Below, piece after piece: positions 428-61,878 of a stretch of 64,000 nt of DNA. Where the stretch lies: contig CM055821.1 of assembly GCA_029582265.1 (NCBI GenBank), positions 42,227,694-42,291,693 of the forward strand, written 5' to 3'. A model generated the notes under the pieces. It did no database searches. It saw only the letters and a list, made by a program, of their open reading frames with translations, and was not told the origin of the DNA. Position numbers and translations under genes: made by a program. The DNA is from Zoroaster sp. YZ-2022 (lineage: Eukaryota; Echinodermata; Asteroidea; Forcipulatida; Zoroasteridae). Positions within the stretch are counted from its first letter, which is position 1. The number at the start of each line of letters is the position of its first letter.

Positions 428-3400
428 CTGATATCTACTGGTTAAGGAACTTACTGAATCAGATCGTCACTTCTGATTAAATAGTATTAGGCCCTACATT
501 TAAACAACACTTATCTGAAAACGTATCTGGTAGAATGTGTGCGCCACAGGTTTCGCACATGCACTGCCCATTGCAGCCATGGTCATAAGCTATGGCACCT
601 GATTGCATGCATTAGTTTTGGTTTTTGTTTTGTATTATTCCGGTCAATATGTTTAGCACTCCTCAATTTATTGTCATTGTTATAGTCGTCATAGTAAATT
701 ATTGTGGCATCATTATTAAAATATGTATCGTTAAGGCGTCCGACTTCGGATCGGAAGAATGATGGTTCGAATCTATTCATGGTCACACAATTTTTCTAAA
801 ACAATGGTAAAAAAAGTCTACAGAACAAGGACCCACCGAGATTTGAATTCGGATCACGAGATTCAGATTCTCGACTGCTAACCATTGCACCATGGGGCCA
901 TGTATTGATGACAGTTTAATTAATTTTGTGTAGCACTGTCCTTCTGTTGCTCAATGGTTTTCTAAAAGTGACGCAGGACGAGTTGTCTAATGTATAAGGC
1001 GTCCGACTTCGGATCGGAAGATTGAGGGTTCGAATCCCTTCGTGCTTGCACAAATTTGGATTTTTTAAAGATAATGTGCATGGGTGCACATCCAGCAACA
1101 GACTCTGATGACAATGTCCTTAATTTTTGTGTAGCACTGTCGTTCCCACCGAGATTTGAACTCGGATCGCGAGATTCAGAGTCTCGAGTGCTAACCATTA
1201 CACCCTGGGACCATGACTTGTATACTGAACATTATTAACAGAAGGCATTATTGGCGTCATTCTAAATTATTGTAGCTTAATTTTTTTTTTCTATATTCAA
1301 GTAGCTTTCCAAATAACCAAACCCGTGTGACCTAGAAATAAAATATTAATAACATTAATTGCTTCACGCAAGGACCCACCGATATTTGAACTCGGATCGC
1401 GAGATTTAGAGTCTCGAGTGCTAAACATTACACCATGGGGGCTATGTGTTGTACAGTGAACATTATTAAAAGAAAGTATTATCGGCGTCATAACAAATTA
1501 TTGTGGCTTTATCAATAATATATATAAATCTTCAAGTAACTTTACAAACAACGCAGGCCACTTGGCCTAATGGATAAGGCGTCCGAATTCCGATCGGAAG
1601 ATTGAGGCTTCGAATCCTTTCGTGGTCGCACAAGTTTTTGGATCTTTTTATGGTGATGTGCATGGATGCACATCCAGCAATAGACTCTGATGACAGTTTC
1701 CTTAATTTTTGTGTAGCGCTGCCGTTCTGTGGCTCATTGGTTTTCTAAAAGAATTGATACAAATGTCTCCAAACAAGATCCCACCGATATTTTAACTCGT
1801 TCGCAAGATTCAGGGTCTCGAGTGCTAAACATTACACTGTGTTGTGTAGTGAACATTATTAAAACATATCGGCATCATAGCAAATCATTGTGGCTTCAGA
1901 AAATAAAATATTAATAACATTAATTGCTTCACGCAAGGTCCCACCGAGATTTGAAATCGTATCGCGAGATTCAGAGTCTCGAGTGCTAACCATTACACCA
2001 TGGGACCATGTGTTGTATACTGAACATTATTAACAGACGGCATTATTGACGCCATACTCAATTATTGTAGCTTATTTTTTTCCCCTTTATTCAAGTAACT
2101 ATTCAAGGAAATGTTTAAATAACGAAGTCCGCGTGGCTTAATGGATAAGGCGTCCGACTTCGGATCGGAAGATTGAGGGTTCGAGTCCCTTCGTGGTCGC
2201 ACAATTTTGGGATCTTTTTATGGTGATGGGCATGGATGCACATCCAGCAATAGACTCTGATGACAGTTTCCTTAATTTCTGTGTAGTGCTGTCGTTCTGT
2301 GGCTCATTGGTTTTCCACAAAAGAATTGTTATAAACGTCAACAAACAAGGTCCCACCGATATTTGAACTCGTTCGCGATATTCAGAGTTTCGAGTGCTAA
2401 ACATAACACTGTGGCACCATGTGTTGTGCAGTGAACATTTTTAAAAGAAGCCGTTATCGGCATCATAGCAAATCATTGTGGCTTCAGAAATAAAATATTA
2501 ATAACATTAATTGCTTCACGCAAGGTCCCACCGAGATTTGAACTCGGATCGCGAGATTCAGAGTCTCGAGTGCTAACCATTACAGCATGGGACCATGTGT
2601 TGTATACTGAACATTATTAACAGAAGGCATTATTGGCGTCATACTAAATTATTGTAGCTTTTTTTTCTTTTCTTTATTCAAGTAACTATTCAAGTAAGTG
2701 TTTTAATAACAAAGGCCGCGTGGCCTAATGGATAAGGCGTCCGACTTCGGATCGGAAGATTGAGGGTTCAAGTCCCTTTGTGGTCGCACAATTTTGGGAT
2801 CTTTTTATGGTGATGGGCATGGATGCACATCCAGCAACAGACTCTGTTGACAGTTTCCTTAATTTTTGTGTAGTGCTGTCGTTCTGTGGCTCATTGGTTT
2901 TCCAAAAGAATGGTTACAAACGTGGTCCAACCGATATTTGAACTCGTTCGCGAGATTCAGAGTCTCGAGTGCTAACCATTACACCATGGGACCATGTGTT
3001 GTATACTGAACATTATTAACAGAAGGCATTATTGGCGTCATACTAAATATTATTGTAGCTATTTTTTTTCTTTATTCAAGTAACTATTCAAGGAAATGTT
3101 TAAATAACGAAGGCCGCGTGGCCTAATGGATAAGGCGTCCGACTTCGGATCGGAAGATTGAGGGTTCGAGTCCCTTCGTGGTCGCACAATTTTGGGATCT
3201 TTTTATGGTGATGGGCATGGATGCACATCCAGCAATAGACTCTATTGACAGTTTCCTTAATTTTTGTGTAGTGCTGTCGTTCTGTGGCTCATTTGTTTTC
3301 CAAAAGTATGGTTACAAACGTCTACAAACAAGGTCCCACCGATATTTGAACTCGATCGCGAAATTCAGAGTTTCGAGTGCTAAACATAACACTATGGCAC

Positions 3401-3783
3401 CATGTGTTGTGCAGTGAACATTTTTAAAAGAAGCCATCATCGGCCTCATAGCAAATCATTGTGGCTTCAGAAATAAAATATGAACAACATTAAACGCTTC
3501 ACGTAAGGTCCCACTGAGATTTGAACTCCGATCGCGAGATTCAGAGTCTCGAGTGCTAACCATTACACCATGGGACCACGTGCTGTATACTGAACATTAT
3601 TAACAGAATGCATTATTGGCGTCATACTAAATTATTGTAGCTTTTTAGGTGTTCGGGTATGTACCCGAAACACCTATTGTTTTTGTACGTTTTTTTTTTT
3701 TGTTTTTACTTCTTCTTAGGTGTTCGGGTATGTGCCCGAAACACCTATTGTTTTTGTTCGGTTTTTTTGTTTTTTTTTTACTT

Positions 3784-3816
<33 letters not shown>

Positions 3817-6800
3817 CTTCTTCTTCTTCTTCTCCCCAATAACTGTCCGGTAACAAACACATACTTGCAAACTTCACATGAACTTGAAACTTGGCATGTA
3901 CTTAGAACTTAACAAGTAGACGAAACACGAGTTGTGAGTGACCCCAATTTGACCTTACTTCCTGTCCAAACCAGAAGTCAAAGTTTAATATTTAAAAAAA
4001 TCATATCTCAACAACCACAAGAGGTAAATTCACAATTTTTGTATCATTGTACAGATCGTCAATTGTCAAAAAATATTTACAAAAAGGTGATCCCAATTTG
4101 ACCTTACTTCCTGTCCAAACCGGAAGTCAAAATTTAATAATTTAAAAAAATTATATCTCAACAACCAGAAGAGGTAAATTCACAATTTTTGTACCATTGT
4201 ACAGATCGTTAATTGTCAAAAAATATTTACAAAACGGTGACCCCAATTTGACCTTACTTCCTGTCCAAACCGGAAGTCAAATTTTAATATTTAAAAAAAT
4301 CATACCTCAACAACCAGAAGAGATAAATTCACATTTTTGTACCATTGTACAGATCGTTAATTGTCAAAAAATATTTACAAAACGGTGACCCCAATTTGAC
4401 CTTACTTCCTGTCCAAACCGGAAGTCAAAGTTTAATATTTTAAAAAATCATATCTCAACAACCACAGGAGGTAAATTGACATTTGTTGCACCATTGTATA
4501 GATTGTTAATTGTTGAAAAATATTTACAAAAAGGTGACCCCAATTTGACCTTACTTCCTGTCCAAACTGGAAGTCAAAGTTTAATATTTAAAAACAATCA
4601 TATCTCAACAACCACAAGAGGTAAATTCACAATCTTTGCACTATTGTACAGATCGTTATTTGTCAAAACAATTTTACAAAAAGATGACCCCAATTTGACC
4701 TTACTTCCTGTGCAAACCGGAAGTCAAAGTTTAATATTTTTAAACAATCATATCTCAACAACCACAAGAGGTAAATTCACAATATTTGCACTATTGTACA
4801 GATCGTTATTTGTCAAAACAATTTTACAAAAAGATGACCCCAATTTGACCTTACTTCCTGTCCACACCGGAAGTCAATGTTTAATATTAAAAAAATCATA
4901 TCTCAACAACCACAAGAGGTAAATTGACATTTTTGTACCATTGTACAGATTGTTAATTGTCAAAAGTATTTACACAAAGTTGACCCCAATTTGACCTTAC
5001 TTCCTGTCCAAACCGGATGTCAAAGTTTAATATTAAAATAATTTCTAAATTCAGTATTGTATTGTATTCACATAAACCTCTCGCGAGAACTTCAACAGAC
5101 GTTAACATTTGACTTCTCCAACACTTCGAATTGATGACGTAACCATTTTAACTTCAACCGAACACCTTGTTTTTGTTGTGACAAAAACTTATATTTCTTC
5201 TTCTTCTTCTTCTTCTTGTTCTTCTTCTCCCCGACGTCTGTCCACAAAGAAACACATACTTGCAAACTTCACATGAACTTGAAACTTGGCATGTACTTAG
5301 AACTTAACAAGTAGATGAAACTCGAGTTGTGAGTGACCCCAATTTGACCTTACTTCCTGTCCAAACCGGAAGTCAAAGTTTAATATTTAAAAAAATCATA
5401 TCTCAACAACCACAACAGGTAAATTGAAATTTTTTGCACCATTGTATAGATTGTTAATTGTCGAAAAATATTTACAAACAACATGACCCCAATTTGACCT
5501 TACTTCCTGTCCAAACCGGAAGTCAAAGTTTAACATTTAAAAAAAATCATATCTCAACAATCACAAGTGGTAAATTCAGAGTTTTGCACCATTGTACAGA
5601 TTGTTAATTGTCAAAAATATTTTTTAAAACATGACCCCAATTTGACCTTTACTTCCTGTCCAAACCGGATGTCAAAGTTTAATATTAAATACTATCATAT
5701 CTCAACAACCACAAGAGGTAAATTCACAATTTTTGTACCATTGTACTGAACGTGAATTGTCAAAAAATATTTACAAAAAGGTGACCCCAATTTGACCTTA
5801 CATCCTGTCCAAACCGGAAGTCAAAGTTTAATATTTAAAAAAAACATATATCAACAACCACAAGTAGTAAATTGACATTTTTGCACCATTGTATAGATTG
5901 TTAATTGTCGAAAAATATTTACACAAAGGTGACCCCAATTTGACCTTAATTCCTGTCCAAACCGGAAGTCAAAGTTTAATATTTAAAAAATCATATCTCA
6001 ACAACCAAAACAGGTAACTTCACAATTTTTATACCATTGTACAGACCGTTAATTGTCAAAAGATATTTACAAAAAGATGACCCCAATTTGACATTACTTC
6101 CTGTCCAAACCGGAAGTCAAGGTTTAATATTTTAAAAAAATCATATCTCAACAACCACAAGAGGTAAATTCACAAATTTTGTACCATTGTACAGATCGCT
6201 AATTGTCAAAATATATTTACAAAAAGATGACCCCAATTTGACCTTACTTCCTGTCCAAACCGGAAGTCAAAATTTTAATATTTAAAAAGATCATATCTCA
6301 GCAACCACAAGAGGTAAATTAAAAAATGTTACACCATTGTACAGATCGTTAATTGTCACAAAATATTTAAACAAAGTTAACCCCAATTTGACCTTACATC
6401 CTCCCGAACACCTAGAGTTTGTGTCGAGACAAACTCTGAATCTCTAGTTTTTTTTTCTTTATTCAAGTAACTATTCAAGTAACTGTTTAAATAACGAAGG
6501 CCGCGTGGCCTAATGGATAAGGCGTCCGACTTCGGATCGGAAGATTGAAGGTTCGAGTCCGTTCGTGGTCGCACAATTTTGGGATCTTTTTATGGTGATG
6601 GGCATGGATGCACATCCAGCAATAGACTCTGTTGACAGTTTCCTTAATTTTTGTATAGTGCTGTCGTTCTGTGGTTGATTGGTTTTCCAAAAGAAGGGTT
6701 ACAAACAAGGTCCCACCGATATTTGAACTCGTTCGCGAAATTCAGAGTTTCGAGTGCTAAATATAACACTATGGCACCATGTGTTGTGCAGTGAACATTT

Positions 6801-9800
6801 TAAAAAGAAGCCATCATCGGCCTCATAGCTAAACATTGTGGCTTCGGAAATAAAATATTAATAACATTAATTGCTTCACGCAAGGTCCCACCGAGATTTG
6901 AACTCGGATCGCGAGATTCAGAGTCTCGAGTGCTAACCATTACACCATGGGACCATGTGTTGTATACTGAACATTATTAACAGACGGCATTATTGGCGCC
7001 ATACTAAATTATTGTAGCTTATTCTTTTTTCCTTTATTCAAGTAACTATTCAAGGAAGTGTTTAAATAACGAAGGCCGCGTGGCCTAATGGATAAGGCGT
7101 CCGACTTCGGATCGGAAGAATAAGGGTTCGAGTCCCTTCGTGGTCGCACAATTTTGGGATGTTTTTATGGTGATGGGGATGGATGCACATGCAGCAATAG
7201 ACTCTGTTGACAGTTTCCTTAATTTTTGTGTAGTGCTGTCGTTCTGTTGCTCATTGGTTTTCCAAAAGAATGGTTACAAACGTCTACAAACAAGGTCCCA
7301 CCGATATTTGAACTCGTTCGCGAAATTCAGAGTCTCGAGTGCTAAACATAAGACTGTGGCACCATATGTTGTGCAGTGAACGTTATTAAAATAAGCCATT
7401 ATTGGCCTCATAGCAAATCATTGTGGCTTCAGAAATAAAATTTTAATATTACTTGCTTCACGCAAGGTCCGACTGAGATTTGAACTCGGATCGCGAGATT
7501 CAGAGTCTCGAGTGCTAAATATAACACTGTGGCACCATATGTTGTGCAGTGAACGTTATTAAAATGAGCCATTATTTGCCTCATAGCAAATCATTGTGGC
7601 TTCAGAAATAAAATATTAACAATAGATATTAGCAATAGACTCTGTTGACAGTTTCCTTAATTTTTGTGTAGTGCTGTCGTTCTGTGGCTCATTGGTTTTC
7701 CAAAAGAATGGTTACAAACAAGGTCCCACCGATATTTGAACTCATTCGCGAAATTCATAGTCTCGAGTACTAAACATAACACTGTGGCACCATATGTTGT
7801 GCAGTGAACGTTATTAAAAGAAGCCGTTATTGGCCTCATAGCAAATCATTGTGGCTTCAGAAATAAAATATTAACAACATTACTTGCTTCACGCAAGGTC
7901 CCACCGAGATTTGAACTCGGATCGCGAGATTCAGAGTCTCGAGTGCTAACCATTACACCATGGGACCATGTGTTCACTGAACATTATTAACAGACGGCAT
8001 TATTGGCGCCATACTAATTATTGTAGCTTATTTTTTCCTTTATTCAAGTAACTATTCAAGGAAATGTTTAAATAACGAAGGCCGCGTGGCCTAATGGATA
8101 AGGCGTCCGACTTCGGATCGGAAGATTGAGGGTTCGAGTCCCTTCGTGGTCGCACAATTTTGGGATCTTTTTATGGTGATGGGCATGGATGCGCATCCAG
8201 CAATAGACTCTGTTGACAGTTTCCTTAATTTTTGTGTAGTGCTGTCGTTCTGTGGCTCATTGGTTTTCCAAAAGAATGGTTACAAACGTCTACAAACAAG
8301 GTACCACCGATATTTGAACTCATTCGCGAAATTCAGAGTCTCGAGTGCTAAACATAACGCTATGGCACAATATGTTGTGCAGTTAACATTATTAAAACAA
8401 GTTATTATTGGCCTCATAACAAATCATTGTGGCTTCAGAAATAAAATATTAATAACATTACTTGTTTCACGCAAAGTCCCACCGAGATTTGAACTCGGAT
8501 CGCGAGATTCAGAGTTTCGAGTGCTAACCATTACACCATGGGACCATGTGTTGTATACTGAACATTATTAACAGACGGCATTATTGGCGCCATACTAAAT
8601 TATTGTAGCTTATTTTTTTCCCTTTATTCAAGTAACTATTCAAGGAAATGTTTAAATAACGAAGGCCGCGTGGCCTAATGGATAAGGCGTCCGACTTCGG
8701 ATCGGAAGATTGAGGGTTCGAGTCCCTTCGTGGTCGCACAATTTTGGGATCTTTTTATGGTGATGGGCATGGATGCACATCCAGCAATAGACTCTGTTGA
8801 CAGTTTCCTTAATTTTTGTGTAGTGCTGTCGTTCTGTGGCTCATTGGTTTTCCAAAAGAATGGTTACAAACGTCTACAAACAAGGTCCCACCGATATTTG
8901 AACTCGTTCGCGAAATTCAGAGTCTCGAGTGCCAAACATAACACTGTGGCACCATATGTTGTGCAGTGAACGTTATTAAAAGAAGCCATTATTGGCCTCA
9001 TAGCAAATCATTGTGGCTTCAGAAATAAAATATTAATAACATTACTTGTTTCACGCAAGGTCCCACCGAGATTTGAACTCGGATCGCGAGATTCAGAGTC
9101 TCGAGTGCTAACCATTACACCATGGGACCATGTATTGTATACTGAACCTTATTAACAGACGGCATTATTGGCGTCATACTAAATTATTGTAGCTTATTTT
9201 TTTTCTTTATTCAAGTAACTATTCAAGGAAGTGTTTAAATAACGAAGGCCGCGTGGCCTAATGGATAAGGCGTCCGACTTCGGATCGGAAGATTGAGGGT
9301 TCGAGTCCCTTCGTGGTCGCACAATTTTGGGATCTTTTTATGGTGATGGGCATGGATGCACATCCAGCAATAGACTCTGTTGACAGTTTCCTTAATTTTT
9401 GTGTAGTGCTGTCGTTCTGTGGCTCATTGGTTTTCCAAAAGAATGGTTACAAACGTCTACAAACAAGGTCCCACCGATATTTGAACTCGTTCGCGAAATT
9501 CAGAGTCTCGAGTGCTAAACATAACGCTGTGGCACGATATGTTGTGCAGTGAACATTATTAAAACAAGCTATTATTAGCCTCATAGCAAATCATTGTGGC
9601 TTCAGAAATAAAATATTAACAACATTACTTGCTTCACGCAAGGTCCCACCGAGATTTGAACTCGGATCGCGAGATTCAGAGTCTCGAGTGCTAACCATTA
9701 CACCATGGGACCATGTGTTGTATACTGAACATTATTAACAGACGGCATTATTGGCGCCATACTAAATTATTGTAGCTTATTTTTTTCCCTTTATTCAAGT

Positions 9801-12800
9801 GACTATTCAAGGAAATGTTTAAATAACGAAGGCCGCGTGGCCTAATGGATAAGGCGTCCGACTTCGGATCGGAAGATTGAGGTTCAGGTCCCTTCGTGGT
9901 CGCACAATTTTGGGATCTTTTATGGTGATGGGCATGGATGCACATCCAGCAATAGACTCTGTTGACAGTTTCCTTAATTTTTGTGTAGTGCTGTCGTTCT
10001 GTGGCTCATTGGTTTTCCAAAAGAATGGTTACAAACGTCTACAAACAAGGTCCCACCGATATTTGAACTCGTTCGCGAAATTCAGAGTCTCGAGTGCTAA
10101 ACATAACACTGTGGCACCATATGTTGTGCAGTGAACGTTATTAAAAGAAGCCATTATTGGCCTCATAGCAAATCATTGTGGCTTCAGAAATAAAATATTA
10201 ACAACATTACTTGCTTCACGCAAGGTCCCACCGAGATTTGAACTCGGATCGCGAGATTCAGAGTCTCGAGTGCTAACCATTACACCATGGGACCATGTGT
10301 TGTATACTGAACATTATTAACAGACGGCATTATTGGCGCCATACTAAATTATTGTAGCTTATTTTTTCTCTTTATTCAAGTAACTATTCAAGGAAATGTT
10401 TAAATAACGAAGGCCGCGTGGCCTAATGGATAAGGCGTCCGACTTCGGATCGGAAGATTGAGGGTTCGAGTCCCTTCGTGGTCGCACAATTTTGGGATCT
10501 TTTTATGGTGATGGGCATGGATGCACATCCAGCAATAGACTCTGTTGACAGTTTCCTTAATTTTTGTGTAGTGCTGTCGTTCTGTGGCTCATTGGTTTTC
10601 CAAAAGAATGGTTACAAACGTCTACAAACAAGGTCCCACCGATATTTGAACTCATTCGCGAAATTCAGAGTCTCGAGTGCTAAACATAACGCTGTGGCAC
10701 GATATGTTGTGCAGTGAACATTATTAAAACAAGCTATTATTAGCCTCATAGCAAATCATTGTGGCTTCAGAAATAAAATATTAATAACATTACTTGTTTC
10801 ACGCAAGGTCCCACCGAGATTTGAACTCGGATCGCGAGATTCAGAGTCTCGAGTGCTAACCATTACACCATGGGACCATGTGTTGTATACTGAACCTTAT
10901 TAACAGACGGCATTATTGGCGTCATACTAAATTATTGTAGCTTATTTTTTTTCTTTATTCAAGTAACTATTCAAGGAAGTGTTTAAATAACGAAGGCCGC
11001 GTGGCCTAATGGATAAGGCGTCCGACTTCGGATCGGAAGATTGAGGGTTCGAGTCCCTTCGTGGTCGCACAATTTTGGGATCTTTTTATGGTGATGGGCA
11101 TGGATGCACATCCAGCAATAGACTCTGTTGACAGTTTCCTTAATTTTTGTGTAGTGCTGTCGTTCTGTGGCTCATTGGTTTTCCAAAAGAATGGTTACAA
11201 ACGTCTACAAACAAGGTCCCACCGATATTTGAACTCGTTCGCGAAATTCAGAGTCTCGAGTGCCAAACATAACACTGTGGCACCATATGTTGTGCAGTGA
11301 ACGTTATTAAAAGTAGCCATTATTGGCCAAATAGCAAATCATTGTGGCTTCAGAAATAAAATATTAACAACATTACTTGCTTCACGCAAGGTCCCACCGA
11401 GATTTGAACTCGGATCGCGAGATTCAGAGTCTCGAGTGCTAACCATTACACCATGGGACCATGTGTTGTATACTGAACATTATTAACAGACGGCATTATT
11501 GGCGCCATACTAAATTATTGTAGCTTATTTTTTCCCCCTTTATTCAAGTAACTATTCAAGGAAATGTTTAAATAACGAAGGCCGCGTGGCCTAATGGATA
11601 AGGCGTCCGACTTCGGATCGGAAGATTGAGGGTTCGAGTCCCTTCGTGGTCGCACAATTTTGGGATCTTTTTATGGTGATGGGCATGGATGCACATCCAG
11701 CAATAGACTCTGTTGACAGTTTCCTTAATTTTTGTGTAGTGCTGTCGTTCTGTGGCTCATTGGTTTTCCAAAAGAATGGTTACAAACGTCTACAAACAAG
11801 GTCCCACCGATATTTGAACTCGTTCGCGAAATTCAGAGTCTCGAGTGCCAAACATAACACTGTGGCACCATATGTTGTGCAGTGAACGTTATTAAAAAAG
11901 CCATTATTGGCCTCATAGCAAATCATTGTGGCTTCAGAAATAAAATATTAATAACATTACTTGTTGCTTCGCAAGGTCCCACCGAGATTTGAACTCGGAT
12001 CGCGAGATTCAGAGTCTCGAGTGCTAACCATTACACCATGGGACCATGTGTTGTATACTGAACATTATTAACAGACGGCATTATTGGCGTCATACTAAAT
12101 TATTCTTTATTCAAGTAACTATTCAAGGAAATGTTTAAATAACGAAGGCCGCGTGGCCTAATGGATAAGGCGTCCGACTTCGGATCGGAAGATTGAGGGT
12201 TCGAGTCCTTCGTGGTCGCACAATTTTGGGATCTTTTTATGGTGATGGGCATGGATGCACATCCAGCAATAGACTCTGTTGACAGTTTCCTTAATTTTTG
12301 TGTAGTGCTGTCGTTCTGTGGCTCATTGGTTTTCCAAAAGAATGGTTACAAACGTCTACAAACAAGGTCCCACCGATATTTGAACTCATTCGCGAAATTC
12401 AGAGTCTCGAGTGCTAAACACAACGCTGTGGCACCATATGTTGTGCAGTGAACATTATTAAAACAAGCTATTATTAGCCTCATAGCAAATCATTGTGGCT
12501 TCAGAAATAAAATATTAATAACATTACTTGTTTCACGCAAGGTCCCACCGAGATTTGAACTCGGATCGCGAGATTCAGAGTCTCGACTGCTAACCATTAC
12601 ACCATGGGACCATGTGTTGTATACTGAACATTATTAACAGACGGCATTATTGGCGCCATACTAAATTATTGTAGCTTATTTTTTCTCTTTATTCAAGTAC
12701 CTATTCAAGGAAATGTTTAAATAACGAAGGCCGCGTGGCCTAATGGATAAGGCGTCCGACTTCGGATCGGAAGATTGAGGGTTCGAGTCCCTTCGTGGTC

Positions 12801-15800
12801 GTACAATTTTGGGATCTATTTATGGTGATGGGCATGGATGCACATCCAACAATAGACTCTGTTGACAGTTACCTTAATTTTTGTGTAGTGCTGTCGTTCT
12901 GTGGCTCATTGGTTTTCCAAAAGAATGGTTACAAACAAGGTCCACCGATATTTGAACTCGTTCGCGAAATTCAGAGTCTCGAGTGCTAAACATAACACTG
13001 TGGCACCATATGTTGTGCAGTGAACGTTATTAAAAGAAGCCATAATTGGCCTCATAGCAAATCATTGTGGCTTCAGAAAAAAAATATTAACAACATTACT
13101 TGCTTCACGCAAGGTTCCACCGAGATTTGAACTCGGATCGCGAGATTCAGAGTCTCGAGTGCTAACCATGGGACCATGTGTTGTATACTGAATATTATTA
13201 ACAGACGGCATTATTGGCGCCATACTAAATTATTGTAGCTTATTTTTTTTCCCTTTATTCAAGTAACTATTCAAGGAAATGTTTAAATAACGAAGGCCGC
13301 GTGGCCTAATGGATAAGGCGTCCGACTTCGGATCGGAAGATTGAGGGTTCGAGTCCTTTCGTGGTCGCACAATTTTGGGATCTTTTTATGGTGATGGGCA
13401 TGGATGCACATCCAGCAATAGACTCTGTTGACAGTTTCCTTAATTTTTGTGTAGTGCTGTCGTTCTGTGGCTCATTGGTTTTCCAAAAGAATGGTTACAA
13501 ACGTCTACAAACAAGGTCCCACCGATATTTGAACTCATTCGCGAAATTCAGAGTCTCGAGTGCTAAACATAACGCTGTGGCACCATATGTTGTGCAGTGA
13601 ACGTTATTAAAAGAAGCCATTATTGGCCTCATAGCAAATCATTGTGGCTTCAGAAATAAAATATTAACAACATTACTTGCTTCACGCAAGGTCCCACCGA
13701 GATTTGAACTCGGATCGCGAGATTCAGAGTCTCGAGTGCTAACCATTACACCATGGGACCATGTGTTGTATACTGAACCTTATTAACAGACGGCATTATT
13801 GGCGTCATACTAAATTATTGTAGCTAAAAAAAATTTCCTTTATTCAAGTAACTATTCAAGGAAGTGTTTAAATAACGAAGGCCGCGTGGCCTAATGGATA
13901 AGGCGTCCGACTTCGGATCGGAAGATTGAGGGTTCGAGTCCCTTCGTGGTCGCACAATTTTGGGATCTTTTTATGGTGATGGGCATGGATGCACATCCAG
14001 CAATGGACTCTGTTGACAGTTTCCTTAATTTTTGTGTAGTGCTGTCGTTCTGTGGCTCATTGGTTTTCCAAAAGAATGGTTACAAACGTCTACAAACAAG
14101 GTCCCACCGATATTTGAACTCGTTCGCGAAATTCAGAGTCTCGAGTGCCAAACATAACACTGTGGCACCATATGTTGTGCAGTGAACGTTATTAAAAGTA
14201 GCCATTATTGGCCAAATAGCAAATCATTGTGGCTTCAGAAATAAAATATTAACAACATTACTTGCTTCACGCAAGGTCCCACCGAGATTTGAACTCGGAT
14301 CGCGAGATTCAGAGTCTCGAGTGCTAACCATTACACCATGGGACCATGTGTTGTATACTGAACATTATTAACAGACGGCATTATTGGCGCCATACTAAAT
14401 TATTGTAGCTTATTTTTTTTCCCTTTATTCAAGTAACTATTCAAGGAAATGTTTAAATAACGAAGGCCGCGTGGCCTAATGGATAAGGCGTCCGACTTCG
14501 GATCGGAAGATTGAGGGTTCGAGTCCCTTCGTGGTCGCACAATTTTGGGATCTTTTTATGGTGATGGGCATGGATGCACATCCAACAATAGACTCTGTTG
14601 ACAGTTACCTTAATTTTTGTGTAGTGCTGTCGTTCTGTGGCTCATTGGTTTTCCAAAAGAATGGTTACAAACGTCTACAAACAAGGTCCCACCGATATTT
14701 GAACTCGTTCGCGAAATTCAGAGTCTCGAGTGCTAAACATAACACTGTGGCACCATATGTTGTGCAGTGAACGTTATTAAAAGAAGCCATTATTGGCCTC
14801 ATAGCAAATCATTGTGGCTTCAGAAATAAAATATTAACAACATTACTTGCTTCACGCAAGGTCCCACCGAGATTTGAACTCGGATCGCGAGATTCAGAGT
14901 CTCGAGTGCTAACCATTACACCATGGGACCATGTGTTGTATACTGAACATTATTAACAGACGGCATTATTGGCGCCATACTAAATTATTGTAGCTTATTT
15001 TTTTCCCCTTTATTCAAGTAACTATTCAAGGAAATGTTTAAATAACGAAGGCCGCGTGGCCTAATGGATAAGGCGTCCGACTTCGGATCGGAAGATTGAG
15101 GGTTCGAGTCCCTTCGTGGTCGCACAATTTTGGGATCTTTTTATGGTGATGGGCATGGATGCACATCCAGCAATAGACTCTGTTGACAGTTTCCTTAATT
15201 TTTGTGTAGTGCTGTCGTTCTGTGGCTCATTGGTTTTCCAAAAGAATGGTTACAAACGTCTACAAACAAGGTCCCACCGATATTTGAACTCGTTCGCGAA
15301 ATTCAGAGTCTCGAGTGCCAAACATAACACTGTGGCACCATATGTTGTGCAGTGAACGTTATTAAAAGAAGCCATTATTGGCCTCATAGCAAATCATTGT
15401 GGCTTCAGAAATAAAATATTAACAACATTACTTGTTTCACGCAAGGTCCCACCGAGATTTGAACTCGGATCGCGAGATTCAGAGTCTCGAGTGCTAACCA
15501 TTACACCATGGGACCATGTGTTGTATACTGAACATTATTAACAGACGGCATTATTGGCGCCATACTAAATTATTGTAGCTTATTTTTTTCCCCTTTATTC
15601 AAGTAACTATTCAAGGAAATGTTTAAATAACGAAGGCCGCGTGGCCTAATGGATAAGGCGTCCGACTTCGGATCGGAAGATTGAGGGTTCGAGTCCCTTC
15701 GTGGTCGCACAATTTTGGGATCTTTTTATGCTGATGGCCATGGATGCACATCCAGCAATAGACTCTGTTGACAGTTTCCTTAATTTTTGTGTAGTGCTGT

Positions 15801-18800
15801 CGTTCTGTGGCTCATTGGTTTTCCAAAAGAATGGTTACAAACGTCTACAAACAAAGTCCCACCGATATTTGAACTCGTTCGCGAAATTCAGAGTCTCGAG
15901 TGCCAAACATAACACTGTGGCACCATATGTTGTGCAGTGAACATTATTAAAAGAAGCCATTATTGGCCTCATAGCAAATCATTGTGGCTTCAGAAATAAA
16001 ATATTAACAACATTACTTGCTTCACGCAAGGTCCCACCGAGATTTGAACTCGGATCGCGAGATTCAGAGTCTCGAGTGCTAACCATTACACCATGGGACC
16101 ATGTATTGTTTACTGAACATTATTAACAGACGGCATTATTGGCGCCATACTAAATTATTGTAGCTTATTTTTTTCCCCTTTATTCAAGTGACTATTCAAG
16201 GAAATGTTTAAATAACGAAGGCCGCGTGGCCTAATGGATAAGGCGTCCGACTTCGGATCGGAAGATTGAGGGTTCGAGTCCCTTCGTGGTCGCACTATTT
16301 TGGGATCTTTTTATGGTGATGGGCATGGATGCACATCCAGCAATAGACTCTGTTGACAGTTTCCTTAATTTTTGTGTAGTGCTGTCGTTCTGTGGCTCAT
16401 TGGTTTTCCAAAAGAATGGTTACAAACGTCTACAAACAAGGTCCCACCGATATTTGAACTCATTCGCGAAATTCAGAGTCTCGAGTGCTAAACATAACAC
16501 TGTGGCACCATATGTTGTGCAGTGAACGTTATTAAAAGAAGCCATTATTGGCCTCATAGCAAATCATTGTGGCTTCAGAAATAAAATATTAACAACATTA
16601 CTTGCTTCACGCAAGGTCCCACCGAGATTTGAACTCGGATCGCGAGATTCAGAGTCTCGAGTGCTAACCATTACACCATGGGACCATGTGTTGTATACTG
16701 AACATTATTAACAGACGGCATTATTGGCGCCATACTAAATTATTGTAGCTTATTTTTTTCCCTTTATTCAAGTGACTATTCAAGGAAATGTTTAAATAAC
16801 GAAGGCCGCGTGGCCTAATGGATAAGGCGTCCGACTTCGGATCGGAAGATTGAGGGTTCGAGTCCCTTCGTGGTCGCACAATTTTGGGATCTTTTTATGG
16901 TGATGGGCATGGATGCACATCCAGCAATAGACTCTGTTGACAGTTTCCTTAATTTTTGTGTAGTGCTGTCGTTCTGTGGCTCATTGGTTTTCCAAAAGAA
17001 TGGTTACAAACGTCTACAAACAAGGTCCCACCGATATTTGAACTCGTTCGCGAAATTCAGAGTCTCGAGTGCTAAACATAACACTGTGGCACCATATGTT
17101 GTGTAGTGAACGTTATTAAAAGAAGCCATTATTGGCCTCATAGCAAATCATTGTGGCTTCAGAAATAAAATATTAACAACATTACTTGCTTCACGCAAGG
17201 TTCCACCGAGATTTGAACTCGGATCGCGAGATTCAGAGTCTCGAGTGCTAACCATTACACCATGGGACCATGTGTTGTATACTGAACCTTATTAACAGAC
17301 GGCATTATTGGCGTCATACTAAATTATTGTAGCTTATTTTTTTTCTTTATTCAAGTAAGTATTCAAGGACATGTTTAAATAACGAAGGCCGCGTGGCCTA
17401 ATGGATAAGGCGTCCGACTTCGGATCGGAAGATTGAGGGTTCGAGTCCCTTCGTGGTCGCACAATTTTGGGATCTTTTTATGGTGATGGGCATGGATGCA
17501 CATCCAGCAATAGACTCTGTTGACAGTTTCCTTAATTTTTGTGTAGTGCTGTCGTTCTGTGGCTCATTGGTTTTCCAAAAGAATGGTTACAAACGTCTAC
17601 AAACAAGGTCCCACCGATATTTGAACTCGTTCGCGAAATTCAGAGTCTCGAGTGCCAAACATAACACTGTGGCACCATATGTTGTGCAGTGAACGTTATT
17701 AAAAGTAGCCATTATTGGCCAAATAGCAAATCATTGTGGCTTCAGAAATAAAATATTAACAACATTACTTGCTTCACGCAAGGTCCCACCGAGATTTGAA
17801 CTCGGATCGCGAGATTCAGAGTCTCGAGTGCTAACCATTACACCATGGGACCATGTGTTGTATACTGAACATTATTAACAGACGGCATTATTGGCGCCAT
17901 ACTAAATTATTGTAGCTTATTTTTTCCCCTTTATTCAAGTAACTATTCAAGGAAATGTTTAAATAACGAAGGCCGCGTGGCCTAATGGATAAGGCGTCCG
18001 ACTTCGGATCGGAAGATTGAGGGTTCGAGTCCCTTCGTGGTCGCACAATTTTGGGATCTTTTTATGGTGATGGGCATGGATGCACATCCAGCAATAGACT
18101 CTGTTGACAGTTTCCTTAATTTTTGTGTAGTGCTGTCGTTCTGTGGCTCATTGGTTTTCCAAAAGAATGGTTACAAACGTCTACAAACAAGGTACCACCG
18201 ATATTTGAACTCGTTCGCGAAATTCAGAGTCTCGAGTGCTAAACATAACACTGTGGCACCATATGTTGTGCAGTGAACGTTATTAAAAGAAGCCATTATT
18301 GGCCTCATAGCAAATCATTGTGGCTTCAGAAATAAAATATTAACAACATTACTTGCTTCACGCAAGGTCCCACCGAGATTTGAACTCGGATCGCGAGATT
18401 CAGAGTCTCGAGTGCTAACCATTACACCATGGGACCATGTGTTGTATACTGAACATTATTAACAGACGGCATTGTTGGCGTCATACTAAATTATTGTAGC
18501 TTAATTTTTTTTCCTTTATTCAAGTAACTATTCAAGGAAGTGTTTAAATAACGAAGGCCGCGTGGCCTAATGGATAAGGCGTCCGACTTCGGATCCGAAG
18601 ATTGAGGGTTCGAGTCCCTTCGTGGTCGTACAATTTTGGGATCTATTTATGGTGATGGGCATGGATGCACATCCAACAATAGACTCTGTTGACAGTTTCC
18701 TTAATTTTTGTGTAGTGCTGTCGTTCTGTGGCTCATTGGTTTTCCAAAAGAATGGTTACAAACGTCTACAAACAAGGTCCCACCGATATTTGAACTCATT

Positions 18801-21800
18801 CGCGAAATTCAGAGTCTCGAGTGCTAAACATAACACTGTGGCACCATATGTTGTGCAGTGAACGTTATTAAAAGAAGCCATTATTGGCCTCATAGCAAAT
18901 CATTGTGGCTTCAGAAATAAAATATTAATAACATTACTTGCTTCACGCAAGGTCCCACCGAGATTTGAACTCGGATCGCGAGATTCAGAGTCTCGAGTGC
19001 TAACCATTACACCATGGGACCGTGTGTTGTATACTGAACATTATTAACAGACGGCATTATTGGCGCCATACTAAATTATTGTAGCTTATTTTTTTCCCCT
19101 TTATTCAAGTAACTATTCAAGGAAATGTTTAAATAACGAAGGCCGCGTGGCCTAATGGATAAGGCGTCCGACTTCGGATCGGAAGATTGAGGGTTCGAGT
19201 CCCTTCGTGGTCGCACAATTTTGGGATCTTTTTATGGTGATGGGCATGGATGCACATCCAGCAATAGACTCTGTTGACAGTTTCCTTAATTTTTGTGTAG
19301 TGCTGTCGTTCTGTGGTTTTCCAAAAGAATGGTTACAAACGTCTACAAACAAGGTCCCAACGATATTTGAACTCATTCGCGAAATTCAGAGTCTCGAGTG
19401 CTAAACATAACGCTGTGGCACGATATGTTGTGCAGTGAACATTATTAAAACAAGCTATTATTGGCCTCATAGCAAATCATTGTGGCTTCAGAAATAAAAT
19501 ATTAATAACATTACTTGTTTCACGCAAGGTCCCACCGAGATTTGAACTCGGATCGCGAGATTCAGAGTCTCGAGTGCTAACCATTACACCATGGGACCAT
19601 GTGTTGTATATTGAACCTTATTAACAGACGGCATTATTGGCGTCATACTAAATTATTGTAGCTTATTTTTTTTCTTTATTCAAGTAAGTATTCAAGGACA
19701 TGTTTAAATAACGAAGGCCGCGTGGCCTAATGGATAAGGCGTCCGACTTCGGATCGGAAGATTGAGGGTTCGAGTCCCTTCGTGGTCGCACAATTTTGGG
19801 ATCTTTTTATGCTGATGGCCATGGATGCACATCCAGCAATAGACTCTGTTGACAGTTTCCTTAATTTTTGTGTAGTGCTGTCGTTCTGTGGCTCATTGGT
19901 TTTCCAAAAGAATGGTTACAAACGTCTACAAACAAGGTCCCACCGATATTTGAACTCATTCGCGAAATTCATAGTCTCGAGTACTAAACATAACACTGTG
20001 GCACCATATGTTGTGCAGTGAACGTTATTAAAAGAAGCCGTTATTGGCCTCATAGCAAATCATTGTGGCTTCAGAAATAAAATATTAACAACATTACTTG
20101 CTTCACGCAAGGTCCCACCGAGATTTGAACTCGGATCGCGAGATTCAGAGTCTCGAGTGCTAACCATTACACCATGGGACCATGTGTTGTATACTGAACA
20201 TTATTAACAGACGGCATTATTGGCGTCATACTAAATTATTGTAGCTTATTTTTTTTCTTTATTCAAGTAACTATTCAAGGAAGTGTTTAAATAACGAAGG
20301 CCGCGTGGCCTAATGGATAAGGCGTCCGACTTCGGATCGGAAGATTGAGGGTTCGAGTCCCTTCGTGGTCGCATAATTTTGGGATCTTTTTATGGTGATG
20401 GGCATGGATGCACATCCAGCAATAGACTCTGTTGACAGTTTCCTTAATTTTTGTGTAGTGCTGTCGTTCTGTGGCTCATTGGTTTTCCAAAAGAATGGTT
20501 ACAAACGTCTACAAACAAGGTCCCACCGATATTTGAACTCATTCGCGAAATTCAGAGTCTCGAGTGCTAAACATAACGCTGTGGCACGATATGTTGTGCA
20601 GTGAACATTATTAAAACAAGCTATTATTAGCCTCATAGCAAATCATTGTGGCTTCAGAAATAAAATATTAACAACATTACTTGCTTCACGCAAGGTCCCA
20701 CCGAGATTTGAACTCGGATCGCGAGATTCAGAGTCTCGAGTGCTAACCATTACACCATGGGACCATGTGTTGTATACTGAACCTTATTAACAGACGGCAT
20801 TATTGGCGTCATACTAAATTATTGTAGCTTATTTTTTTTCTTTATTCAAGTAACTATTCAAGGAAGTGTTTAAATAACGAAGGCCGCGTGGCCTAATGGA
20901 TAAGGCGTCCGACTTCGGATCGGAAGATTGAGGGTTCGAGTCCCTTCGTGGTCGCACAATTTTGGGATCTTTTTATGGTGATGGGCATGGATGCACATCC
21001 AGCAATAGACTCTGTTGACAGTTTCCTTAATTTTTGTGTAGTGCTGTCGTTCTGTGGCTCATTGGTTTTCCAAAAGAATGGTTACAAACGTCTACAAACA
21101 AGGTCCCACCGATATTTGAACTCGTTCGCGAAATTCAGAGTCTCGAGTGCCAAACATAACACTGTGGCACCATATGTTGTGCAGTGAACGTTATTAAAAG
21201 AAGCCATTATTGGCCTCATAGCAAATCATTGTGGCTTCAGAAATAAAATATTAACAACATTACTTGCTTCACGCAAGGTCCCACCGAGATTTGAACTCGG
21301 ATCGCGAGATTCAGAGTCTCGAGTGCTAACCATTACACCATGGGACCATGTGTTGTATACTGAACATTATTAACAGACGGCATTATTGGCGCCATACTAA
21401 ATTATTGTAGCTTATTTTTTTCCCCTTTATTCAAGTAACTATTCAAGGAAATGTTTAAATAACGAAGGCCGCGTGGCCTAATGGATAAGGCGTCCGACTT
21501 CGGATCGGAAGATTGAGGGTTCGAGTCCCTTCGTGGTCGCACAATTTTGGGATCTTTTTATGGTGATGGGCATGGATGCACATCAAGCAATAGACTCTGT
21601 TGAGAGTTTCCTTAATTTTTGTGTAGTGCTGTCGTTCTGTGGCTCATTGGTTTTCCAAAAGAATGGTTACAAACGTCTACAAACAAGGTCCCACCGATAT
21701 TTGAACTCGTTAGCGAAATTCAGAGTCTCGAGTAGTAGTATGTTAGATGGGGGTACGGGGACAGTTGACCTTTTTGTGGGCGTGGTTGATGAGATTAAAA

Positions 21801-24800
21801 AGGGGGTGGGAGGCGTGGTTGTTGAGATTAAAAAGGGGTTGGTGTGGTTGTGTTGATGACGTCATCATTTTTGATGACGTCATGAAAGATTTGTGGTGGT
21901 AGGTTGGTATAGGTAAGATTTAAAAATAGTCTTAAAAATCTGTAAAATCTACCCCTGAAAAAAAGTTATCGTTTTTAGTCGTTAAAAAAATTGAAATAAC
22001 GATTCGATATTATGTAGATAAATAGTAAAGATGACGACGAGAGCGCTGATTCCCTGCGAATGGCTTTTAGTTGGCAAAACAGAAAAGTGTTGTAGACTAA
22101 GTGTGTGTGGTGGTGTATTTTGCCCGCTTCATGTGTGGCGTATTCGACACGGTCAAAGTATACCCGTTGCGTGTAGAAGATGTAAAAATGGCACAAAAAC
22201 ACCGATAAATTTATGTACGAAATGCGGTAATGTATTAAAAATAAATTATTTAAATCGCGTTGAAGAAAAAGCTAGACGGCATTATAATATAGTGATGAAT
22301 GAGTTGATAGAGACAACAACACGTTGATAGTGAATATATATAAAATTTAAAAATTATAATTATACGGCGGGGGAGCAAGCGACGGCGGAGGTCGCGTATC
22401 CTCGTTAAATCTGGATTTATTTACACTAAAGTTTATATTAATTTCATAAGTTTTTCTATAAGATCTTTTTTTTGATCTAAATTAACATCTTGTTTTTTAT
22501 CGACATTGTCATTTTTAGCCGCTGCACGGATACTTTCATTCAATTTATAATAGTTATCTCGTTCTTCGCAGATCCAAACAAATTCTTCTTGGGTAATGAC
22601 ATTGTCTTCGATAGCTTTTGAAACGCGGTTTTCGATCGAGTTGAGTTTAGCTTTAGCTAAAACTCTAATTTCATCGTGTTTTGTAGCTTTTTTAAATAAT
22701 ATATTTTTCGTGTGTATGAGAGCAACCGCACCACAGCATAACCCTGCAGCTAATCCTCCAAAAGCATATCCTACGGGCGACGCTACAACGCTGCCGATAC
22801 TGGCGATTCCAACGGCTCCTGTTCCCACACCTGCCATTTCAGCGAGATCTTCTACAATAGTACAAGTTTTGATGATTTTATTATATTTTTTATACGTTTT
22901 CTGGCGTTGGTACATTTCGGCTCGTAATTCTTTTTGAATATCGTCGATTTTTTGCAAACGAAATGCGTTTACGTTCGAGTTTTCGATATTGTTAGCTACT
23001 GAAGCATCCTTCATATACCGTACATCTGGATAAAGTACATTTGTTGATTCTATAGGTACACTCATTGTTTTCTATTAATAGTAAAAGGTTTAAAAAAAAT
23101 CTAATTTAGAAAGTTTTTCTCGAAATTGTCGTGCTTTTTCATGAATGACAGACATGGCATATACAGCAGCAGCACAGCTTAGTGCAATTGTCAGACCAAA
23201 CGTTGTTATCATTTTTACGTCGTTATAAATTTGGATGAAATCATCTAAATTTTCACACGTTTCATTGATTTCATTGATTTTTTTTATATACAACCTCACG
23301 TTGGTTTTTTCTGCTTGTAATTCTTTTTGTAAACGTTGCACTTCGCAGCGAACCAAGTCTTGGATATTATCTGTAGTCATTGTTTTTCTATTAATAGTAA
23401 AAGATTAAAAATAATTAATTTAACAGCCAAGTTTTAATTTTAATATCGTAACAGATTCCAGCTTCTAAAGAGCCGAAAAATGTCGCTTGTACAAATATTT
23501 TTCTGTTGTACTTGCTGTTGTTTTCTATTTTGAAGCAAATTCCACATTCTAGATGCTTTACTTTATTATCATTAAAAAAAAGTTTTCATCATCATTACTA
23601 GAACATTATTTATAAAAAAGTCAGGATTGTGCTGCGGAAAAATTTCACGTTTTTCAACGATTTGATAAACGTTTTCACCATGAATTATTTTTGCATAAGT
23701 TGAACAATCTGTTATTGGTACAAAGATATCAAACGAGGGCGTAGCTGTATGGTTTTGCCACGCGATCCAAAATATATCATCTAATTTATACAATGTTGTA
23801 CCAAATAAAACTTCATCATTAGTATATAATATGACCACTTTGATGAAAAAAGTTGTTATCGTTAGTGACAATACCACTTGTTTGACTCTTTTTGCTTGTT
23901 CGACTAGGACCATAAATACTCGCCATATTTATTATAGTATAAATTTAATTTAATGGCAAACTTTTAATTTTTATATTGAAACAGATTTTAGTGTTTAGCG
24001 CACCGAAAAAGCTTCCTTGTACAAAAACCTTTTCATTTCGCGTTTTGAAACAAATTTCGTATTGTACGTGCTGCGAAGTGTTGTTGAAAACTAAACTTTT
24101 ATCTCGAGCGGGAGAAGGAATATGATATACGTTAACGTCAAAACTACCTTCCGCCGAATGTGAATAAAAACCGTCAGCTTTCGCAAATTTTACAAAAATT
24201 GAGCAGTATGCGGGTGCTTGATTAAACATGTAAAAGGGTAGTTTAAGCCTACCGTGCCATCCGAGTATAATTTGATATTTTTCGACAAGAACTATCGTTT
24301 GTAAAATTTCATCACTATCGATATAGCCGTGATGTTGGTAAATGTTCGAGTTGATATAATTACCGCTAAATGAAATTTGCGCGCTCGTTCGACTGGGTCC
24401 GTAAATGCTCGCCATATTTATATAATTTCTAGATTTAAAATTATGGGGAAACCGTGATTATTTATGTCTCTACCCTTTGAATCTTTAATTTGAAAATTCA
24501 ATGCGTTAAAAGTACCGGTTTTAAGCTTTTTCATTAATGGATTTTTATATTCTATCCACATACTCTCTCCGAACGATTTGTCTTGTAACGGAAAAGCGTT
24601 TAAAAATAGTACAAGGTTTACCGTTGAAATAATTTTCGGTCGTAGAAATTTGATCGCAATGAATGTATAAAATTTTAAAAAGTTGTACATCAATTTTTTT
24701 ACTATATTCTCCCACAGTTAGAAATTCGTTGTGAAACCCGAGTAAATTAGCTAATTGTTTTCTTGAGTCAAATTTAGCAAGAAAAAACCTGTTTTTTCAT

Positions 24801-60985: not shown

Positions 60986-61435
60986 TCTGCCTTGCCAGTC
61001 GCTCCACGGTGCAGATTAAGATAAGCCATCGTCTTCTTTTTGATCTCTGTATAAAATGCTCAAGAAAATATTCATTTAAGGATTAAAATGCTCAATTGTT
61101 TGATAGACAATGATCTTTATGATACTTTGGGAAATATGTTACATGTAGTTATCCATTTTTTTTTTTTTTTACTATCTCTGAGTGAGAAGGGGTAATGCTT
61201 TATATCTAGGCCCTTATCAGTTTGTGGGGGGGGGGAAGGAGTCATACCATGTGATATGTATTCAGTTTGTTTTGGTGTTATGAATTTTAAAAAAACTTAT
61301 CAATTTTGAAAAGATCAAATACCAATTTGTCTAATGACAGTGGAACATAGCCTCATCTCCTGTAACTTGCAGAAACTGTCTGTTAAAGCCAATACATGTA
61401 CATGTACAAGAGAACGTTGATTACATCAGTTGGTT

Positions 61436-61878
61436 GGCTAAGTATTGGGTTGGCCAAGTATTGGGTTGGCCAAGTATTGGGTTGGCTAAGTATTGGGTTG
61501 GCCAAGTATTGGGTTGGCTAAGTATTGGGTTGGCCAAGTATTGGGTTGGCTAAGTATTGGGTTGGCTAAGTATTGGGTTGGCCAAGTATTGGGTTGGCCA
61601 AGTATTGGGTTGGCTAAGTATTGGGTTGGCCAAGTATTGGGTTGGCCAAGTATTGGGTTATAGTATTAGGTTGGCCAAGTATTGGGTTGGCTAAGTATTG
61701 GGTTAATAAGTATTGGGTTAGCTAAGTATTAGGTTGGCTAAAGTATTAGGTTAGCCAAGTATTAGGTTATTAAGTATTAGGTTAATAAGTATTGGGTTAT
61801 TAAAGTATTAGGTTAATAGTATTAGGTTGGCCATATTATAAGTATTGGGTTAATAAGTATTGGGTTGGCCAAGTTTTT
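61436..61878. repeat. 17-bp minisatellite downstream of the NAPA stop
   Basis: TAAGTATTGGGTTGGCC repeated about 25 times, alternating GGCTAAG and GGCCAAG variants, decaying to shorter forms at the right. If the AATAAA at 62274 is used, it lies in the NAPA 3' UTR. Confidence 0.95.

What the first reader, a model, noticed from the sequence alone, without database searches (positions are those of the whole stretch)
6499..21539. Tandem array of about 26 units each pairing tRNA-Arg(UCG) with an opposed tRNA-Gln(CUG)
Two different isoacceptors on opposite strands are amplified together as a 585-bp unit. Most copies keep complete cloverleaves and Pol III terminators. Large fixed-ratio tRNA arrays are uncommon, and the purpose (supply of Arg CGA and Gln CAG decoding, or a structural or boundary role) is open.
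Basis: seen in the sequence. Interest (0 to 1): 0.75.

Follow-up and report, generated by a model that had tools for sequence, protein, structure and literature searches.

The report
Sea-star tRNA-Arg/tRNA-Gln tandem gene array
This stretch of a sea-star-like genome holds dozens of copies of a small unit with a tRNA-Arg and a tRNA-Gln gene pointing away from each other; it is one of several large tRNA-gene arrays in that genome and most likely a store of working tRNA genes kept uniform by recombination and selection.

Summary
In detail: 26 tRNA-Arg(UCG) genes on + and 24 tRNA-Gln(CUG) on - in 6499-21540. The array is longer than reported: decayed units from 719, a 2.8-kb satellite-bearing insertion, a ~15.4-kb Polinton (21734-37094) and a decayed tail to ~38153. 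Gln and Arg are head-to-head, ~119 bp apart; each unit also carries a dead Gln copy (PsiGln).

In 23 core units the two genes vary 6-8 times less than PsiGln (5 and 2.5 times if gaps count). Promoter boxes survive in 23/24 Arg, 22/23 Gln and 0/23 PsiGln. Edge units are diverged.

In the 1.0-Gb genome a homologous array on C15 pairs Arg(UCG) with Gln(UUG). The two arrays hold 61 of 70 Arg-UCG matches and all 32 exact ones. The other families searched by pattern (Glu, Val, Ala) also have big arrays, as do Lys/Thr and Cys.

Best reading: a functional tRNA-gene reservoir under concerted evolution and purifying selection. Expression was not testable. Tandem tRNA arrays are known (Entamoeba, Arabidopsis SYY, human 1q23.3); this is a new member. 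The isoacceptor split between sister arrays and the anticodon-shifted Gln bodies are unusual.

The parts
719..3640 (.). left, decayed part of the array: truncated and diverged Arg/Gln units
   Evidence: ARAGORN/Rfam; unit BLAST; divergence per region
3641..6433 (.). insertion carrying 150-bp satellite arrays that splits the array
   Evidence: TRF, sequence; boundaries approximate, read by eye
6499..21733 (.). main array: 26 Arg(UCG) + genes, 24 Gln(CUG) - genes (ARAGORN); homogeneous core 8080-21733
8664..8736 (+). representative tRNA-Arg(UCG) gene; A and B boxes, T4 run from +6
   Evidence: 20 of 24 core copies identical over 73 nt
8807..8883 (.). 77-bp block (unit positions 144-220) without a substitution in 23 core units (indels occur); unexplained
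   Evidence: 31 of 20000 random placements have a run as long; no Rfam family other than tRNA above cut-off, fold no better than shuffles
8883..8953 (-). representative PsiGln: degenerate tRNA-Gln relic without A and B boxes
   Evidence: 0 of 23 core copies have either box
9058..9129 (-). representative tRNA-Gln(CUG) gene
   Evidence: 19 of 23 core copies identical over 71 nt
9130..9246 (.). shared 5' flank between divergent Gln and Arg
21734..37094 (.). Polinton/Maverick inserted in a PsiGln of the array; ends alike over ~310 bp; target duplication CGAGT at 21729-21733 and 37095-37099
   Evidence: ATPase and integrase domains, polymerase frame. Described only
37105..37729 (.). MITE-like element with inverted ends next to the Polinton
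   Evidence: sequence, ends read by eye
37730..38153 (.). right decayed tail with one Arg (37855-37927) and relics
44619..44690 (+). tRNA-Gln(CUG) outside the array, same gene sequence, unmatched flanks
46696..46767 (+). second such Gln copy, in a local duplication of the first

Best explanation
This is a tandem array of working tRNA genes. An ancestral divergent Arg(UCG)-Gln gene pair was amplified by unequal exchange. The array is kept uniform by continued exchange or gene conversion (concerted evolution), while selection keeps gene-damaging variants from spreading; copies at the edges escape exchange and decay. Shown: composition, homogeneity, conserved genes beside a decayed internal control, diverged edges, a homologous array on another chromosome, arrays for other tRNA families in the same genome. 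Inferred: the exchange mechanism, and that the copies are transcribed by Pol III and supply Arg-UCG and Gln-CUG tRNA in at least some cells or stages (egg or early embryo would be speculation).
For: Core diversity without gaps: Arg 0.0048 and Gln 0.0060 against PsiGln 0.038 and spacers 0.010-0.038. Variants shared by two or more units: 1 at 145 gene positions against 33 at 438 others, Fisher p=0.0008. A and B boxes both in 23/24 Arg and 22/23 Gln, neither in 23/23 PsiGln; T4 runs downstream. Two Gln copies outside the array share the gene sequence but not the flanks. Identity does not fall with distance along the array. C6 and C15 units are homologous yet each set is one side of a 100/100 branch. 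Edge Arg copies differ from the consensus at 5.4%, spacers at 4.3-9.3%. 61 of 70 Arg-UCG and 63 of 79 Gln matches genome-wide lie in the two arrays, as do all 32 exact 57-nt Arg cores.
Against: No expression data. Singletons are not clearly rarer in genes: 7/145 against 34/438, p=0.27. With gaps counted, Gln diversity is 0.0156, only 2.5 times below PsiGln, and in a rotation test 116 of 583 windows are as low as Gln (16 of 583 for Arg). One spacer block (unit 144-220) is as invariant as the genes. At the edges Gln still differs least (2.6%), which a plain 'edges decay freely' story does not predict. In the C15 sister array 21 of 32 Arg matches and 32 of 33 Gln matches differ from the C6 core, 23 of the latter carrying UUG. 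In other arrays genes are not always calmer than spacers: C22 Thr-AGU 0.040 against 0.033, C10 Thr-UGU 0.105 against 0.052 in 6 units; 36 Cys-GCA genes have 30 distinct sequences. Fisher tests treat columns as independent.
Confidence: 0.65

Rival explanations
1. A mostly silent, satellite-like amplification: the array grew by neutral unequal exchange, few or none of its copies are expressed, and uniform genes reflect recent homogenisation.
For: Diverged edges and relics, insertion of a Polinton and satellite DNA, no clear deficit of singletons in genes, uneven constraint in other arrays, and nine near-identical Arg matches outside the two arrays that could do the work. Entamoeba authors think many array copies may be inactive (PMC2652664, section 'Function' read). 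The Arabidopsis SYY array is silent in most tissues (PMC12308677, abstract and passages).
Against: PsiGln in the same units is as variable as spacers while its intact paralogue is not; exact Arg-UCG cores were found only in the two arrays.
Confidence: 0.25
2. A chromatin boundary or organising element: Pol III factor sites in bulk separate domains, as proposed for the human 1q23.3 tRNA repeat with CTCF.
For: Precedent in PMC4041453 (passages); an unexplained invariant 77-bp block in each core unit.
Against: No CTCF-like motif at up to 2 mismatches between 719 and 21733; 13 matches elsewhere in the window, 8.5 expected by chance (motif recalled). CTCF-independent boundaries were not tested.
Confidence: 0.05
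3. A mobile, tRNA-derived repeat (SINE-like) that spread and then became tandem.
For: Homologous Arg-Gln units with alike spacers on C6, C15 and C13.
Against: Units are head-to-tail and hold two full-length tRNA genes on opposite strands; matches are clustered (61 of 70 Arg in two arrays); Gln copies outside the array in this window share only the gene. No tail was seen by eye. The whole unit was not searched genome-wide (unanswered, not repeated).
Confidence: 0.03
4. Assembly artefact: copy number inflated or collapsed by misassembly.
For: Tandem arrays are hard to assemble; raw reads were not available.
Against: The 23 core units differ by 75 substitution variants and by indels, the array is anchored by unlike flanks and insertions, and arrays on several chromosomes look alike in kind.
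Confidence: 0.02

Closest known systems
Arabidopsis SYY cluster (tRNA-Ser/Tyr/Tyr tandem repeat), PMC12308677 (abstract, passages, section 7 read)
   Same: tandem units holding genes for two amino acids; a uniform core flanked by variable regions with more pseudogenes; dispersed copies also exist
   Different: plant; Arg/Gln here, divergent strands, a fixed PsiGln per unit; expression and methylation unknown here
Entamoeba tRNA gene arrays, PMC2652664 (abstract and two sections read)
   Same: several distinct array types, each unit with a set of tRNA genes, for several amino acids; mostly uniform within arrays
   Different: there almost all tRNA genes and over 10% of the genome; here only eight amino acids were seen in arrays, dispersed copies exist, and the arrays met are a tiny part of 1 Gb
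Human 1q23.3 tRNA VNTR, PMC4041453 (passages)
   Same: tandem unit with tRNA genes on both strands, ~98% identity within the array
   Different: 7.3-kb GC-rich unit, five tRNA genes, CTCF binding; the unit here is ~585 bp, two intact genes, no CTCF-like motif found
Large animal tDNA clusters (Nematostella, teleost fishes), PMC2888827 (passages)
   Same: clusters of fifty and more, mixed amino acids, pseudogenes interspersed; head-to-head pairs reported
   Different: the Arg-UCG/Gln pairing and its split into CUG and UUG arrays were not in the passages seen

Membership tests
Tandem tRNA gene array | many head-to-tail copies of a unit with intact tRNA genes | tested here: met
   26 Arg and 24 Gln in 15 kb; 23 core units at 96.9% mean identity
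Tandem tRNA gene array | units evolve in concert | tested here: met
   identity flat with distance; C6 and C15 each one side of a 100/100 branch, 32 C6 rows and the 11 full-length C15 matches in the 8 kb fetched
Pol III tRNA genes (internal A and B boxes) | A box, B box and downstream T run | tested here: met
   23/24 Arg, 22/23 Gln; T4 at +6 and +28/29 (box patterns recalled)
Pol III tRNA genes (internal A and B boxes) | transcription and charging | not testable with these tools
   no RNA or ChIP data on hand
Entamoeba-type genome organisation | almost all tRNA genes in arrays | tested here: inconclusive
   the five families answered by pattern (Arg, Gln, Glu, Val, Ala) have large arrays, Lys, Thr and Cys arrays were met; Leu, Pro, Ser, Gly, Asp, Phe and others were not searched, initiator Met stayed unanswered, and lone Lys, Asp, Asn and Leu genes lie in fetched stretches
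Human 1q23.3-type CTCF boundary array | CTCF motif per unit | tested here: not met
   0 matches in 719-21733 at up to 2 mismatches (motif recalled)
tRNA-derived SINE | dispersed single copies | tested here: not met
   Arg and Gln matches are clustered
tRNA-derived SINE | A-rich or repeat tail and target duplications | not tested
   looked at by eye only

The most novel reading that the evidence does not exclude
In this sea star most nuclear tRNA genes sit in tandem arrays with a set gene content, an Entamoeba-like organisation in an animal. After an Arg-Gln array was copied to another chromosome the sister arrays split the Gln isoacceptors (CUG on C6, UUG on C15), and homogenisation spread further anticodon changes: 8 of 33 Gln matches on C15 carry UUU (Lys) and 1 carries UUA (stop) in a Gln body. 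Array turnover would thus make and fix anticodon switches, possibly feeding stage-specific or mistranslating tRNAs.
Probability: 0.3. Interest if true: 0.75.

Novelty: new member of a known kind. Interest (0 to 1): 0.5.

Why it matters
Each repeat is a natural experiment: intact Arg and Gln genes next to a dead Gln copy in the same unit, so selection on array copies can be measured. Homologous arrays that differ in Gln anticodon let one watch isoacceptors arise and spread. If tRNA arrays prove to be the rule in this animal, sea stars become tractable animals for asking why genomes keep tens to hundreds of copies of one tRNA gene.

Tried and rejected
SINE-like origin and CTCF boundary were considered and set aside (see rivals). 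A hidden RNA gene in the invariant 77-bp block: up to E 1 only tRNA and weak, below-cut-off matches over the tRNA genes themselves; its fold is no better than shuffles (54 of 200 as good); in edge units it diverges like its surroundings. Neighbouring units as closest relatives: rejected, identity is flat with lag. CpG observed/expected: unit 1.03, spacers 0.81, right flank of the window 0.73; no depletion, no conclusion. Pfam on ten window frames: domains only in the Polinton ATPase and integrase frames; the polymerase frame itself had none. Papers: the listed parts (one search found none) show no title or abstract on nuclear tRNA arrays in sea stars; several of those lists were cut (e.g. 12 of 79, 15 of 65). 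Arbacia lixula (PMC11310861, passages) has 3,393 annotated tRNAs; in Ophioderma (PMC9367165, passages) the passages speak of mitochondrial tRNAs. Initiator Met was tried as a further family and never answered.
Full report
WHAT IS THERE. ARAGORN tRNA genes in the window: 31 Arg-TCG, 32 Gln-CTG and one each called Gly, Pyl and Thr; the Gly and Pyl are decayed Arg and Gln copies by position. Rfam lists 68. In 6499-21540 there are 26 Arg on + and 24 Gln on -, so 'about 26 units' is right. The two genes point away from each other with ~119 bp between them. Each unit holds a third element, a tRNA-Gln relic (PsiGln) on - between Arg and the next Gln.

EXTENT AND INSERTIONS. Unit matches run from 680 to 38153. 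The left part is decayed and cut from the core by ~2.8 kb carrying 150-bp satellite arrays. On the right a Polinton of ~15.4 kb lies inside a PsiGln, with a CGAGT target duplication and ends alike over ~310 bp with a few gaps. It has A32-like ATPase and integrase domains and a polymerase-like frame: no Pfam match of its own, but relatives at about 60% identity carry PF03175, a type B DNA polymerase domain (name recalled). A MITE-like element and a decayed tail with one Arg follow. The 10 kb on either side of the window hold no tRNA gene by ARAGORN (L024, L025).

ORGANISM. The alpha-SNAP exons at 51-58 kb, joined by eye to 243 residues, are 92% identical to Asterias amurensis and 87% to Acanthaster planci. 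An ORF at 40761-41792 matches 4 proteins, of which the two named ones are from sea stars. The window is C6:42227694-42291693 of an assembly of 1,001,958,528 bases in 616 contigs. I take it to be a sea star; the species is not known.

SELECTION. I aligned 23 core units (8080-21466). Diversity without gaps is 0.0048 in Arg, 0.0060 in Gln, 0.038 in PsiGln, 0.0098 in the Arg 3' flank, 0.038 in the middle spacer and 0.036 in the shared 5' flank; with gaps as a state Arg is 0.0071, Gln 0.0156, PsiGln 0.038. Variants carried by two or more units: 1 at 145 gene positions, 33 at 438 others (p=0.0008). All variants: genes 8/145 against PsiGln 14/71 (p=0.003). Singletons alone do not differ clearly (7/145 against 34/438, p=0.27). 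PsiGln is as variable as the middle and shared spacers (p=1.0). So mutations arise in genes but rarely spread. In a rotation test 16 of 583 windows are as invariant as Arg, 116 of 583 as Gln. A 77-bp block (unit 144-220) has no substitution; 31 of 20000 random placements have a run as long. It is unexplained.

PROMOTERS. 20 of 24 Arg and 19 of 23 Gln core copies equal the consensus. Both boxes (patterns recalled) are found in 23/24 Arg and 22/23 Gln, neither in 23/23 PsiGln. T4 runs start at +6 after Arg (24/24) and at +28 or +29 after Gln (23/23).

CONCERTED EVOLUTION. Mean identity is 0.964-0.978 at every lag, with no excess for neighbours. Pooled over 12 edge pieces, differences from the core consensus are Arg 5.4%, PsiGln 7.3%, spacer regions 4.3-9.3%, Gln 2.6%. 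At the edges Arg looks unprotected; Gln still differs least.

GENOME-WIDE ARG AND GLN. A 57-nt Arg core with up to 3 mismatches (no indels) gives 70 matches: 29 in this array, 32 at C15:378-403 kb, 3 at C13:16.6 Mb, 2 at C6:43.9 Mb, 3 on C8 and 1 on C18. The 32 exact ones are 21 here and 11 on C15 (counted by hand). A 55-nt Gln core gives 79: 30 in this array, 2 more in the window, 33 on C15, 8 at C13:16.6 Mb, 3 at C6:43.9 Mb, 1 on C12, 2 on C18. On C15, by the matched text, 23 of 33 carry TTG (Gln-UUG), 8 TTT, 1 TTA and 1 CTG. ARAGORN on 8 kb of it finds 18 genes in the same divergent Arg/Gln order and calls two TTT copies Lys. The C15 stretch is homologous to the C6 unit: 85-86% over 224 bp from Arg in the best copies and 77-78% over ~242 bp in others, 84-88% over ~145 bp at Gln. 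A tree of 32 C6 rows and the 11 full-length C15 matches in that 8 kb puts each set on one side of a branch with 100/100 support (22 of 30 inner branches open, bootstrap not settled). The C13:16.6 Mb cluster (17 genes in 5.5 kb: 8 Arg, 7 Gln-TTG, 2 Gln-CTG) is also homologous.

OTHER FAMILIES. The family search scored only 63 of 146085 candidates, but its places led to arrays: Lys-UUU/Thr-AGU/Thr-UGU on C10 (165 genes in the 40 kb fetched, right end not reached) and C22 (105 in 30 kb), a smaller cluster on C1 (16), and C20 (40 genes in 10 kb, 36 called Cys-GCA). Patterns recalled from animal tRNAs gave: Glu, 121 matches, 100 listed, of which 59 on C3 (Glu-CUC and Glu-UUC, two per ~434 bp), 22 at C13:22.2 Mb, 9 on C5, 10 elsewhere; Val, 161 matches, 100 listed, 93 of them in one C6 array at 20.47-20.49 Mb with AAC, CAC and TAC mixed; Ala, 90 matches, 84 on C11, the 8 genes read there all CGC. 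Each of the five families answered by pattern thus has an array; the other anticodons were not tested, and lone Lys, Asp, Asn and Leu genes lie in other fetched stretches. Constraint in other arrays is uneven: C22 Lys 0.018, Thr-UGU 0.010 and Thr-AGU 0.040 against spacer 0.033; C10 (6 units) Thr-UGU 0.105, Lys 0.027 and Thr-AGU 0.012 against spacer 0.052; C20 Cys 0.069 against 0.142.

COMPARISON AND VERDICT. The core-and-variable-edge plan matches the Arabidopsis SYY cluster. A set of arrays with fixed gene content resembles Entamoeba. Mixed animal clusters are known. I file this as a new member of a known kind. The most likely function is supply of Arg-UCG and Gln-CUG tRNA; expression, timing and the fate of the anticodon-shifted Gln bodies are open.

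Noticed in passing
L040 (C15:386000-394000), e.g. 3178-3249 and 5370-5441; genome C15:378-403 kb: tRNA-Gln bodies with anticodon TTT (8 of 33 Gln matches) and one TTA; the TTT copy printed also has acceptor and D-loop changes, so it may be a pseudogene.
   Followed up: partly
21734-37094: Polinton/Maverick with nearly matching ends inside the array; described only.
   Followed up: partly
8807-8883 and the same place in other core units: 77 bp without any substitution in 23 units, no known RNA family, not specially conserved in edge units.
   Followed up: partly
L042 (C13:22192000-22194500): A Glu array in which ARAGORN also tRNA-Ile(GAT) on the opposite strand; an unusual anticodon for an animal (recalled), and one Glu body with CTT.
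   Followed up: no
L044 (C6:20484000-20488000): Val array with a ~157-bp monomer whose neighbouring copies differ in anticodon (AAC, CAC, TAC): 23 genes in 4 kb, 22 called Val, 1 undetermined.
   Followed up: partly
44300-45000 and 46400-47040: Local duplication, each copy with an identical tRNA-Gln(CUG) outside the array.
   Followed up: no
58379-59180 and 61432-61871: A 74-bp tandem repeat next to the alpha-SNAP exons and a 16-bp tandem repeat.
   Followed up: no
40761-41792: 343-aa ORF with only 4 relatives found, the two named ones in sea stars; no Pfam domain.
   Followed up: no
57090-57162: Lone tRNA-like sequence called Thr(AGT), 50.9 bits, between alpha-SNAP exons.
   Followed up: no
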